This document shows positions 61,711-64,000 of a DNA stretch of 64,000 bases, piece by piece. Position 1 is the stretch's first letter, and every line of letters starts with the position of its first letter. The stretch spans positions 965,416 to 1,029,415 of the forward strand of contig KB235926.1 of the NCBI GenBank assembly GCA_000332255.1, read 5' to 3'. A program made the position numbers and the translations under genes. The stretch comes from a cyanobacterium PCC 7702. GTDB lineage: Bacteria; Cyanobacteriota; Cyanobacteriia; Cyanobacteriales; Nostocaceae. Below the pieces are notes generated by a model. That model worked only from the letters and a program-made list of their open reading frames with translations. It ran no database searches and had not been told where the DNA came from.

Positions 61711-61745
61711 AGACGCCAGAACATAATTTTTCTCGGCGTCTTTGC
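61711..61745 (+). terminator. Intrinsic terminator before the bacteriocin-like cluster
   Basis: AGACGCC (61711-61717) pairs with GGCGTCT (61735-61741), extended by AGAA/TTCT with one bulge, followed by a T-rich tail. It closes the transcript from cobU and the hypothetical gene, so the peptide genes are a separate transcription unit. Confidence 0.7.
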
Positions 61746-62117
61746 TTTATGGGTGTGGAAAAATTTTTGCTGTGTAATAGTGTATAGGTTAGGTTTTTAA
61801 ATACTACCTTCAGCACTGTACAATCAGGAAAGTATTCACTACAAACTTTAATTGCATTTAGTTTCTAAGCTGAAATTGCCATTTGATACAATCCTCCTAA
61901 AGGAAGATTTTTGAATGTATTTTTCGGAAATACTAATACCTTAAACCTGCAATGATATTTTCTCAAGCAGGCAATAAAGTTGGCAGAAATTGTTAATGCG
62001 AGAAATATTGTCTACCGTATATCGTAGAAATCAAGCAACAAGTTGAGCAAGCTAAATCAAAGTGGCAATAATAAAAGCTTAGTCAACTTGAATTCACGTC
62101 AGACAAAGGAGTCAACC
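61746..62117. other. Likely promoter region of the bacteriocin-like cluster
   Basis: 372 bp between a terminator and the first precursor gene. No gene is visible: an upstream in-frame TTG at 62043 lacks a ribosome site. AAGGAG at 62106-62111 sits 6 bases before the ATG at 62118. Exact promoter boxes cannot be assigned. Confidence 0.45.
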
Positions 62118-62348
62118 ATGGAATTTAATTTGTTTACAGATCTATCTGAAGAACAACAAGAACTGACCTCTGGTGGCGGTCAACTCATTAGCGCTAGCGA
62201 GTATGACGCTACTAAGTTTGAGTATCAACTAGTAAGTCTCAACAAGGCTATTGCTTCTGGTCCGGGAGGTTCTGCAGTTGTTAGCAACTTAGCAACTGCA
62301 TTCGTATACACATCTGCCGATCAATGGCTGTATCTGAAATTTAATTAA
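62118..62348 (+). CDS. Double-glycine leader peptide, bacteriocin-like precursor 1
   Basis: 76 aa. The leader MEFNLFTDLSEEQQELTSGG ends in a Gly-Gly site; the core (~56 aa) begins GQLISASEYDATKFEYQL and contains the conserved block NKAIASGPGGS. There is no cysteine anywhere. Length, LSEEQQE and SGG are those of cyanobacterial CTB-type bacteriocin-like peptides (family knowledge). It is 68% identical (52 of 76) to the next gene's product. The frame opens earlier, but this ATG alone has a good ribosome site (AAGGAG). Probably processed by the C39 transporter starting at 63569. Confidence 0.8.
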   Translation: MEFNLFTDLSEEQQELTSGGGQLISASEYDATKFEYQLVSLNKAIASGPGGSAVVSNLATAFVYTSADQWLYLKFN

Positions 62349-62461
62349 ACCCGGTAGTACAAATTTCTACTTTCTACTAAAAAGATTCTAGGGACTGATA
62401 CGGAAGTAGGGTCTCTGGATTTCTCCTAACTAATTTTTGCAGTTTATAAATCAGGTGACAA

Positions 62462-62692
62462 ATGGAAACTGGACTGTTTTTAGAGTTATCAGAAGAACAG
62501 CAAGAAATGACCTCTGGTGGCGGTCAACTCATTGGCGCTAGCGAGTATGACGTCACCAAATACGAGTTACAATTAGTTAATCTTAACAAGACAATCGCTT
62601 CTGGTCCCAACGGCTCTTTTATAACTAAGAGATTGTCAACCGCATTCCTTCTCACCTCTGCTCAACAATATCTAGATTTGGACTTCAACTAA
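62462..62692 (+). CDS. Double-glycine leader peptide, bacteriocin-like precursor 2
   Basis: 76 aa and a close paralogue of precursor 1. Leader METGLFLELSEEQQEMTSGG; core GQLIGASEYDVTKYELQLVN, then NKTIASGPNGS; no Cys. The leader/core junction is almost identical in DNA to that of precursor 1 (44 of 45 bases), while the C-terminal thirds differ, so the two arose by recent duplication or have been homogenised at the junction. AGGTGA precedes the ATG. The 113-bp gap from precursor 1 has no other feature. Confidence 0.8.
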   Translation: METGLFLELSEEQQEMTSGGGQLIGASEYDVTKYELQLVNLNKTIASGPNGSFITKRLSTAFLLTSAQQYLDLDFN

Positions 62693-62817
62693 ACTTCATC
62701 TGAGTACAGCGAATGGGTTGATGAATCAATCGAGTTTAGTAGTGTAAACAGATTCCAGAGTCTTATACTCTGGAGTCTTTACCAAATTAATTACCTGCAG
62801 AGCGCGACAATAGAAAA

Positions 62818-63057
62818 ATGAAACTACAAGATTCTTTTTTGACATTAGAAGAACTAAAAGACGAGTCTGCTGAAACTATATCAGGTGGTGTTTCAACACC
62901 ACAGCTACCAACGTTTCCGACTAACTTACCGTTCAATCCATTTGCAAATCAAGGAAGTACGGCAGCTGAAGAAAGTCCAGAACAAAGTATTACAAAAGCA
63001 AGTGGAGAAATACGGGAGGCAAAGAGTTTACTTAGACTTGTAAAAAGTGCCTTCTAA
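62818..63057 (+). CDS. Double-glycine leader peptide, bacteriocin-like precursor 3 (divergent)
   Basis: 79 aa. Leader LTLEELKDESAETISGG with Gly-Gly at 23-24, then a Pro-rich core (VSTPQLPTFPTNLPFNPFAN) and a charged helix-like end (SLLRLVKSAF). No Cys. It is unlike precursors 1 and 2 beyond the leader. The start ATG 62818 has only a weak ribosome site. It may be a second peptide of a multi-component system or another substrate of the same exporter. Confidence 0.7.
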   Translation: MKLQDSFLTLEELKDESAETISGGVSTPQLPTFPTNLPFNPFANQGSTAAEESPEQSITKASGEIREAKSLLRLVKSAF

Positions 63058-63158
63058 CAATCTCAAAATTTTTGAATGTAAAAAGAATTATTTTGGTGCT
63101 CAATTATCTACAACAGCTGTGTATTATATAGTGTGGTAGTAATTTTGAGGTATAAATA

Positions 63159-63494
63159 ATGTCAGTTTCCAAAACTCCATTCTCAAATTCTCAATCCTTA
63201 GAGCCAAAATTGTTTTTGGAGTTATCTGAGCAGGAACAAGAAGCTGTTGTGGGGGGATACAATTTTTTCATTCAAAAAACGGCGATAAATACTTTTGCAA
63301 TTAACGAAGAAAGTGTTTCTAACGGTAGCACTAGTGCTTCATTAAAGCAACAAACTGGCTATAGTTTCTCCCAACTCACTTTTGGCTTTGATTTGAGTAA
63401 TCTGTTTGGTGGAAACACTATAAGTAGAATGCGTCGATATGGTTACAGTCCTTTAAACATGATCTACAAATTGCTTTTGTATCTGTTTATGTAA
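63159..63494 (+). CDS. Double-glycine leader peptide, bacteriocin-like precursor 4
   Basis: 111 aa, the longest of the set. The leader LEPKLFLELSEQEQEAVVGG (Gly-Gly at 32-33) closely follows the LxLSExEQE pattern. The core (~78 aa) is Ser/Thr/Phe-rich (YNFFIQKTAINTF, FSQLTFGFDLSNLFGGN), ending in a short hydrophobic LLLYLFM. No Cys. GAGG lies 8 bases before the ATG. The C39 transporter begins 75 bp downstream. Confidence 0.75.
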   Translation: MSVSKTPFSNSQSLEPKLFLELSEQEQEAVVGGYNFFIQKTAINTFAINEESVSNGSTSASLKQQTGYSFSQLTFGFDLSNLFGGNTISRMRRYGYSPLNMIYKLLLYLFM

Positions 63495-63568
63495 GTTAGA
63501 CTCCAAAAGTATAGATTGAGAAAGAACTCTGGTGAGTTCTAGCTTCCAGTACCTTGGATGAGATACCA

Positions 63569-64000
63569 ATGAAGTATAAAGTTGTCAAACAGCATAGTGA
63601 AGAGGACTGCGGCGCTGCTTGTATTGCTTCTATTGCTAAATATTACGGGCGTACTTTCACTCTCAATCATATTCGTGAAGTAGTAGGTACTGGCCAGTTT
63701 GGGACTACTTTACTAGGGCTAAAACGAGGGGCAGAAGCACTAGGATTTAACGCCCGTCCAGTGAAAACTTCACCAGAGCTTTTAAACCGCATCAACGAAG
63801 CACCTCTACCAGCAATTATTCACTGGCGGGGAAATCACTGGGTAGTTTTATACGGAAAGAAAGGTAAAAAGTGTGTAATTGCAGATCCTGCTGTAGGCAT
63901 TCGTTATCTGACTAAAAAAGAATTAGCGGATAATTGGAATGATTGGTTAATGCTGTTATTGCAGCCAGACCCAATTCGCTTTTTTGCCCAAAAGGATGAC
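63569..64000 (+). CDS. Peptidase C39-containing ABC transporter, 5' part (cut by window end)
   Basis: Open frame with no stop before the window end: 144 residues of the N-terminal C39 peptidase. The residues expected in double-glycine peptidases are all present: Gln8 (oxyanion), Cys14 (EEDCGAACIASIAKYYG), His90 (IHWRGNHWVVLYG) and Asp106 (VIADPAVGIRYL). The rest should be the membrane and ATPase domains of a peptidase-containing ABC transporter, but they lie outside, so a free-standing C39 protein cannot be excluded. It would cut after Gly-Gly in the four upstream precursors and export the cores. Confidence 0.88.
   Translation, partial: MKYKVVKQHSEEDCGAACIASIAKYYGRTFTLNHIREVVGTGQFGTTLLGLKRGAEALGFNARPVKTSPELLNRINEAPLPAIIHWRGNHWVVLYGKKGKKCVIADPAVGIRYLTKKELADNWNDWLMLLLQPDPIRFFAQKDD

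What the first reader, a model, noticed from the sequence alone, without database searches (positions are those of the whole stretch)
62118..64000. Compact cluster of four double-glycine precursors feeding a C39 peptidase/exporter
Seen: four consecutive short frames each carry an LxLSExxQE-like or LTLEEL leader ending in Gly-Gly, directly upstream of an intact C39 catalytic domain (Gln8, Cys14, His90, Asp106). A terminator at 61711 isolates them from the upstream cobU unit. Known: C39 domains cut Gly-Gly leaders in bacteriocin and CTB-type systems. Inference: this is a single secreted-peptide locus. It is the most distinctive system in the window.
Basis: partly seen in the sequence, partly recalled or inferred. 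Interest (0 to 1): 0.75.

Follow-up and report, generated by a model that had tools for sequence, protein, structure and literature searches.

The report
Cyanobacterial peptide-export locus with built-in regulator
The window's end holds the start of a cyanobacterial gene cluster that makes, trims and exports four small peptides; the cluster type is known, but here it appears wired to its own sensor genes through related promoter elements, which makes its control testable.

Summary
Four short frames with Gly-Gly leaders (62118-63494) precede an intact C39 peptidase at 63569. Two precursors pass the NCBIfam "CTB family bacteriocin" cut-off, the fourth misses it, the third matches nothing. The cluster type (Wang 2011 group III) is known. 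Additions: (1) a kinase-like protein with Arg where the phospho-His is expected (34 of 35 loci), a response regulator and a CHASE2 kinase follow the adaptor; 34 of 80 named relatives keep this order. (2) The last precursor belongs to a second, basic family (19 of 35 loci, single copy, always nearest the exporter). (3) A ~170-nt noncoding element precedes the precursor array and a related one precedes the regulator genes; sequence models of each find the other across relatives, though only weakly in this genome. Best reading: a self-regulated secreted-peptide locus. Binding by the regulator is inferred, and what the peptides do (antagonism, matrix, signal) is not shown.

The parts
61711..61741 (+). 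hairpin (possible terminator) behind the cobU unit
   Evidence: RNA fold -14.3 kcal/mol, z -2.65; not listed by the consensus scan
61916..62087 (+). conserved noncoding element before the precursor array: TGTATTTTTCGGAAAT block, imperfect palindrome about 60 nt further, then the leader region
   Evidence: blastn in 29 of 36 other upstream regions; alignment A3; model R1 in 38 loci, 8 of them not used in training
62118..62348 (+). precursor P1, CTB family
   Evidence: NF038167 58.2 bits, cut-off 32
62462..62692 (+). precursor P2, CTB family, duplicate of P1
   Evidence: NF038167 52.0 bits; repeat of 146 nt, 80% identical to P1
62818..63057 (+). precursor P3, LTLEEL...SGG leader
   Evidence: no family match; tblastn relatives only in L043 and L045 of 80 loci
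63159..63494 (+). precursor P4, second family with basic core, nearest the exporter
   Evidence: 19 of 35 loci; alignment A2 of 16; NF038167 28.9 bits, below cut-off
63569..64000 (+). C39 peptidase domain of the exporter; the gene runs on to 65719 in extended coordinates. Beyond the window (window coordinate = L002 position + 60000): HlyD adaptor 65755-67173; element before the regulator genes 67249-67366; kinase-like ORF 67369-68094 (start codon uncertain); response regulator 68172-68864; CHASE2 kinase 68946-70841

Best explanation
A self-regulated secreted-peptide locus of a heterocyst-forming cyanobacterial lineage. Shown: precursors, complete exporter, adaptor, sensor/regulator genes, and related elements before both gene groups. 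Inferred from family knowledge: the C39 domain cuts each precursor after Gly-Gly while the exporter, with the HlyD adaptor and an unlinked TolC-type channel, moves the mature chains out, probably unmodified, since no modifying enzyme was seen among the genes scanned and the cores lack Cys. Inferred: the CHASE2 kinase phosphorylates the response regulator, which binds the element before the precursor array and the related one before its own genes, so that a signal raises both cargo and sensors; the kinase-like protein without the phospho-His tunes this.
For: Complete exporter and adaptor, full-length match to the peptidase-containing transporters PCAT1 and ComA, invariant catalytic residues; 2-5 pattern-defined precursors in each of 35 loci; exporter-HlyD-kinase-like-regulator-CHASE2 order in 34 of 80 loci, all inside one 40-row branch of the exporter tree with support 100; regulator beside an exporter in 18 of 22 and kinase-like gene in 17 of 19 genomes that have them; R1 and R2 find each other's sites across relatives; each has one strong copy in the own genome.
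Against: For the own locus the cross-match is weak: R2 on the array element E 0.12, and genome-wide at E<=10 neither model lists the other's site. A two-block matrix before the kinase-like gene passed the 99% shuffle level in only 3 of 35 loci. Four loci (L042, L057, L066, L081) show no R2 element before that gene. L068, L069, L072 and L073 have exporter and HlyD without the regulator genes in the stretch held, and L069 still has the element. The regulator's DNA-binding end matches Pfam only below cut-off and the CHASE2 protein's ATPase domain is below cut-off. No binding, expression or secretion data.
Confidence: 0.5

Rival explanations
1. Ordinary group III bacteriocin cluster: the peptides inhibit related cyanobacteria, and the neighbouring sensor genes are bystanders that regulate something else, for example the DUF928/CHAT genes next to them.
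For: CTB profile matches; variable cores; related regulator-CHASE2 sets occur near DUF928/CHAT genes without an exporter (L124) or about 9 kb from one (L125).
Against: The sensor unit stays with the exporter in 34 of 80 loci, while the DUF928 gene is found in only part of them; related elements precede both units. I saw no obvious immunity gene, but did not search for one beyond the family scans of the genes listed.
Confidence: 0.15
2. Matrix or aggregation peptides like EbfG1-4 of Synechococcus elongatus, exported by a C39 transporter and needed for biofilm. This concerns the function of the cargo and can be true together with the best explanation.
For: The tested function that I read of for cyanobacterial Gly-Gly proteins is biofilm formation (PMC4997328, parts 1-2 of 5; PMC9981879, passages); P4 is predicted as a long beta hairpin.
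Against: The published amyloid hot-spot motif, searched loosely as A[FILV]NI[GSA], is in none of 111 cores. P4 model confidence is modest (mean pLDDT 65). EbfG sequences were not fetched or compared.
Confidence: 0.3
3. The elements are real promoters but are bound by another regulator (global or from a paralogous system), not by the linked one.
For: Weak copies lie before other genes in relatives; L069 keeps the element without the linked regulator genes in the stretch held; regulator paralogues exist elsewhere in the own genome.
Against: One strong copy of each element in the own genome, next best E 0.028 and 0.048; 21 of 25 R1 hits under 1e-11 in 60 genomes lie within 8 kb of an exporter, and one of the other four lies near the regulator in G029.
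Confidence: 0.25

Closest known systems
Group III cyanobacterial bacteriocin clusters (Wang et al. 2011, PMC3140520; parts 1-3 of 5 read)
   Same: Gly-Gly precursors in an array, short C39 transporter, HlyD, no SurA or second ABC transporter among the genes scanned
   Different: The parts read do not mention a linked sensor/regulator unit, a shared promoter element or a second conserved precursor family; the supplementary tables were not seen
EbfG1-4 / PteB of Synechococcus elongatus (PMC4997328, PMC9981879)
   Same: four small Gly-Gly proteins upstream of a C39 peptidase transporter
   Different: published amyloid motif not found in these cores; no comparison of sequences made; no regulator unit mentioned in the parts read
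ComABCDE / Blp peptide-pheromone circuits of streptococci (architecture recalled; listings)
   Same: Gly-Gly peptide, C39 exporter (ComA matches over residues 8-705), accessory protein, kinase and regulator in one locus, related promoter elements for cargo and regulators
   Different: the sensor is a CHASE2 protein and the regulator shows no LytTR match; peptide sensing untested
HetC of Nostoc PCC 7120 (PMC10986499, passages)
   Same: cyanobacterial C39 ABC transporter
   Different: HetC has an N-terminal nucleotide-binding domain, and its authors found no Gly-Gly precursor near it

Membership tests
CTB family bacteriocin precursors (NF038167) | score above the curated cut-off of 32 bits | tested here: met
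   P1 58.2 and P2 52.0 met; P4 28.9 and P3 (no match) not met
Group III cyanobacterial cluster | short C39-membrane-ATPase transporter without N-terminal CAP_ED | tested here: met
   Pfam domains over 716 aa
Group III cyanobacterial cluster | HlyD-type adaptor | tested here: met
   HlyD_3 69.2 bits, cut-off 22.2; NCBIfam type_I_hlyD 167.8 is below its cut-off of 208.65
Group III cyanobacterial cluster | no SurA, LanM or second ABC transporter in the cluster | tested here: met
   none among the seven genes scanned from the exporter to the CHAT gene, nor among the upstream frames scanned
Group III cyanobacterial cluster | transporter falls in clade III of the published tree | not tested
   published sequences not fetched
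NHLM/NHLP export system | TIGR03796 above cut-off | tested here: not met
   440.1 bits, cut-off 853.3
EbfG biofilm proteins | published amyloid hot-spot motif | tested here: not met
   0 of 111 cores
EbfG biofilm proteins | needed for biofilm | not testable with these tools
   experiment needed
Peptide-pheromone circuit (Com/Blp type) | kinase and LytTR regulator of the Gram-positive type (recalled) | tested here: not met
   CHASE2 protein and receiver-domain regulator without a LytTR match
Peptide-pheromone circuit (Com/Blp type) | cargo and regulator units share a regulatory site | tested here: inconclusive
   related elements across relatives, weak in the own locus (E 0.12); binding untested
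Peptide-pheromone circuit (Com/Blp type) | kinase senses an exported peptide | not testable with these tools
   experiment needed
Active sensor histidine kinase (kinase-like ORF L002:7369-8094) | histidine-kinase fold | tested here: met
   model pLDDT 79; 176 PDB hits at E<=0.001, the 50 listed being kinases of this type by title; query TM-scores in the list 0.31-0.51
Active sensor histidine kinase (kinase-like ORF L002:7369-8094) | phosphoacceptor His | tested here: not met
   Arg at the motif position in 34 of 35, His in L042; the equivalence rests on the motif, hhalign was not significant

The most novel reading that the evidence does not exclude
A cyanobacterial, Gram-negative counterpart of the streptococcal peptide-pheromone circuit: one exported peptide (most likely the single-copy, conserved, basic P4) is sensed by the linked CHASE2 kinase, and the regulator drives both the peptide-exporter unit and its own unit through the related elements, with the kinase-like protein as a brake.
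Probability: 0.15. Interest if true: 0.8.

Novelty: new variant of a known kind. Interest (0 to 1): 0.5.

Why it matters
What cyanobacterial Gly-Gly peptides do is open apart from the biofilm case that I read of. A conserved sensor/regulator unit and defined promoter elements give a handle: find the signal, switch the locus on, then collect and assay the peptides. A conserved kinase fold that seems to have lost its phospho-His is of interest to signalling research as well.

Tried and rejected
NHLM/NHLP membership: below cut-off. Rfam search of L002:1600-11500: 0 matches at E<=1. RNA structure as the reason for the conserved element: RNAalifold gives 3 pairs at -0.95 kcal/mol with a covariation term of 0.01, so the elements were modelled as sequence only. 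A two-block matrix before the kinase-like gene passed the 99% shuffle level in 3 of 35 loci; before exporter, HlyD, regulator and CHASE2 genes in 1, 0, 0 and 0 of 34. The same kind of matrix on 81 loci, both strands, gave 125 hits at 10 bits or more against 2 on reversed sequence, but most are training sites and overlapping duplicates. hhalign of the kinase-like protein against the CHASE2 protein's C-terminal part was not significant (probability 0.1%). P4 fold search: 0 hits at E<=0.001. PADLOC: only generic or partial domain matches. No PDB sequence relative of P2 at E<=1. A LexA prediction names alr5147, numbered just before the published group III HlyD gene alr5148 (passages); not followed.

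Rows dropped and parts used. Of 118 leader-pattern hits in 35 loci I removed 8 as spurious or doubtful by eye (three protease-like frames in L051, L055, L060; one each in L056, L057, L067; two in L049), leaving 110; the pattern misses P3. Controls: 1 hit on the reverse strand of the same 194 kb; 5 hits in 543 kb of downstream sequence, both strands. R1 was trained on 30 sites, own included. R2 was trained on 28; the own locus and L040, L042, L052, L057, L066, L081 were left out. R1 was searched in 59 loci, R2 in 46. Structure input: 28 of 35 kinase-like homologues, 16 of 19 P4-type. L114 was left out of the tree as too short.

Full report
Location and extension. The window is C1:965416-1029415 of a 4.9-Mb genome. 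I took 20 kb across its end as L002, where L002 position = window position minus 60000.

What is there. Four short frames lie head to tail: P1 62118-62348, P2 62462-62692, P3 62818-63057, P4 63159-63494. The C39 frame at 63569 continues to L002:5719 as 716 residues with C39, ABC membrane and ATPase domains above Pfam cut-offs, although every full-length NCBIfam transporter model listed is below its own cut-off. It matches PCAT1 (4ry2) over residues 2-710 and ComA over 8-705. An HlyD-family adaptor follows (L002:5755-7173; above Pfam cut-offs, below the NCBIfam one). Then come a 241-residue protein without a Pfam match above cut-off, a receiver-domain regulator, a CHASE2 protein with a kinase-like end (L002:8946-10841), a DUF928 protein and, on the other strand, a CHAT/TPR protein. 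Outer-membrane OEP (TolC-type) matches lie elsewhere in the genome: 5 above cut-off, in 4 frames.

Precursors. P1 and P2 are CTB family by the NCBIfam cut-off; P4 is just below it; P3 has no match. P1 and P2 share a 146-nt repeat at 80% identity. In 34 named syntenic loci plus this one the cleaned pattern gives 110 precursors, 2 to 5 per locus. By a core pattern of mine they fall into two groups: 19 P4-type (cores of 71-85 residues, net charge +1 to +7, mean +4.0, none with Cys), single in 19 of 35 loci and always nearest the exporter; and 91 others, CTB-like in look but not tested against the profile (41-79 residues, -10 to +3, mean -3.3, 2 with Cys). Here the cores of P1 and P2 have charge -1 and that of P4 +3. 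In two genomes of the same genus the pattern finds one CTB-like and one P4-type precursor each, and tblastn finds no P3 relative. Presence of P4 needs 2 changes on the exporter tree. P4 is predicted as a beta hairpin (36-54, 59-77) plus a C-terminal helix, mean pLDDT 65, with no significant PDB match.

Conserved neighbourhood. One scan with the C39 domain gave 80 named loci, the best 80 of 163. Exporter, HlyD, 241-aa protein, regulator and CHASE2 gene are collinear in 34 of 80; exporter and HlyD are adjacent on one strand in 43 of 80. In a FastTree tree of 81 exporters the 35 syntenic rows (own included) all lie in one 40-row branch with support 100; the other five rows in it are L068, L069, L070, L072 and L073. 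The label needs 5 changes on the tree, at least 3 by starred branches, against 26.5 in shuffles, so one gain with several losses is possible but not shown. L070 has the 241-aa protein and the regulator, but its CHASE2 match is on the other strand. In 60 genomes, own included, the regulator (22 hits at 64% identity or more) lies within 8 kb of a listed exporter in 18, and the 241-aa protein in 17 of 19; the latter is next to such a regulator in 19 of 19.

The signalling proteins. The CHASE2 protein keeps IHNGPLQ in all 35 aligned rows and an EEALCNVGK-like stretch behind it, although its ATPase domain is below Pfam's cut-off. The regulator keeps its acidic pair, the VMDLS site and the ADKS lysine; its DNA-binding end is inferred from a sub-threshold match. 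The 241-aa protein is predicted with mean pLDDT 79 as a long helix, a second helix and a kinase-type ATPase fold; Foldseek gives 176 PDB hits at E<=0.001, and the 50 listed are by title kinases of this type or complexes with them, several of them DesK, with query TM-scores of 0.31-0.51. Where the motif puts the phosphoacceptor it has Arg in 34 of 35 homologues and His in L042. hhalign aligned the same residues but without significance. I read it as a conserved pseudokinase.

Shared elements. Comparing spacers showed a conserved noncoding stretch before the array, found by blastn at E<=0.05 in 29 of 36 other upstream regions. The 30-sequence alignment has a TGTATTTTTCGGAAAT block and an imperfect TTTRCA-N5-TGYAAA palindrome (arm positions matching: 6 of 6 in 5 rows, 5 in 14, 4 in 7 including the own row, 3 in 4) and 72% mean column identity. 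The two blocks score best at a spacing of 60 nt in 24 and 61 nt in 6 of the 30. Model R1 matches before the array in 38 loci: 33 of 34 syntenic named loci (in L045 the contig ends about 1.25 kb before the exporter), the own locus, both congeners, L069 and L070; 8 of the 38 were not in its training set. Its other 25 hits at E<=0.1 fall, by my sorting, before later precursors (11), before the 241-aa gene (6), before a gene downstream of CHASE2 in six Nostoc loci (6), before another Gly-Gly precursor (1, L125) and inside an exporter gene (1, L070). That downstream gene, tested in L062, resembles PspA/IM30 only weakly (E 0.0018, below cut-off).

Aligning the region before the 241-aa gene showed an element of the same kind. 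R2, trained on 28 such sites without this locus, finds the own site at L002:7249-7366 (E 2.4e-12) and those of L128, L129, L040 and L052, which were also not in training. It finds none before that gene in L042, L057, L066 and L081. Of its 60 hits at E<=1, 33 are before the 241-aa gene, 22 are array-side elements (best 2.1e-5 in L058; own 0.12) and 5 lie elsewhere. In the own genome each model has one strong hit, R1 1.2e-25 and R2 1.3e-11, with next-best 0.028 and 0.048; at E<=10 neither lists the other's site. So the relation between the two elements is clear across relatives and weak in this genome. The own element ends 3 nt before the TTG that I took as start of the 241-aa frame; the true start may lie further in. 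In 60 genomes R1 hits 32 and R2 20 at E<=0.01; of 25 R1 hits under 1e-11, 21 lie within 8 kb of a listed exporter. Weak copies in relatives precede Gly-Gly precursors and, by eye, two-partner-secretion-like genes. That the linked regulator binds these elements is inference.

Literature. Wang 2011 (parts 1-3 of 5) defines the cluster groups; this one fits group III by gene content. Mining of Subsection V cyanobacteria (PMC4558948, passages) counts 21 group III clusters in 13 genomes; 'response regulator' does not occur in its main text. Parnasa 2016 (PMC4997328, parts 1-2 of 5) and a 2023 paper on amyloid (PMC9981879, passages) report a tested function for such proteins, biofilm formation. One cluster of Nodularia CTB genes rises in phosphate limitation, a second does not (PMC9846622, passages). 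A search for CHASE2, bacteriocin and cyanobacteria gave 0 papers. The wider word sets gave listings in which I saw no title or abstract start describing the linked regulator unit. Only open-licence papers are held, so this is not proof of absence.

Verdict. The finding is real and rightly read. The cluster is a known kind; the linked, conserved regulator unit, the second precursor family and the related promoter elements make it a variant worth testing.

Noticed in passing
L124 (G000:C1:374001-394000): A paralogous regulator (59%) lies near CHAT-like, CHASE2-like and DUF928-like matches, with no exporter match in the stretch.
   Followed up: partly
L125 (G019:C1:946001-966000): A second set of 241-aa protein (32%), regulator (58%), CHASE2, DUF928 and CHAT lies about 9 kb upstream of another C39 exporter, with a weak R1 element (E 0.019) before a Gly-Gly precursor.
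   Followed up: partly
L141 (G019:C1:1215001-1229000): Weak R1 copies precede frames that look by eye like two-partner-secretion genes (FhaB-like and ShlB-like); no family scan was made.
   Followed up: no
L062:17851-18413: An R1-like element (E 1.4e-8) precedes a 127-aa coiled-coil-like frame downstream of the CHASE2 gene; hits at the same place in L044, L050, L053, L054 and L064.
   Followed up: partly
G000:C1:4853728-4855863 (L126): A second short-type C39 exporter (64% identical) with an HlyD match behind it; the pattern finds a possible Gly-Gly frame at L126:11135-11263.
   Followed up: no
G052:C128:59769-61517: An exporter relative (78%) matched only from residue 134 on, in a 585-aa frame, so the peptidase domain may be missing there.
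   Followed up: no
window 62693-62817: A strong hairpin in the P2-P3 spacer (spacer fold z -2.27, 5 of 200 shuffles as good) could lower transcription of the genes behind it.
   Followed up: no
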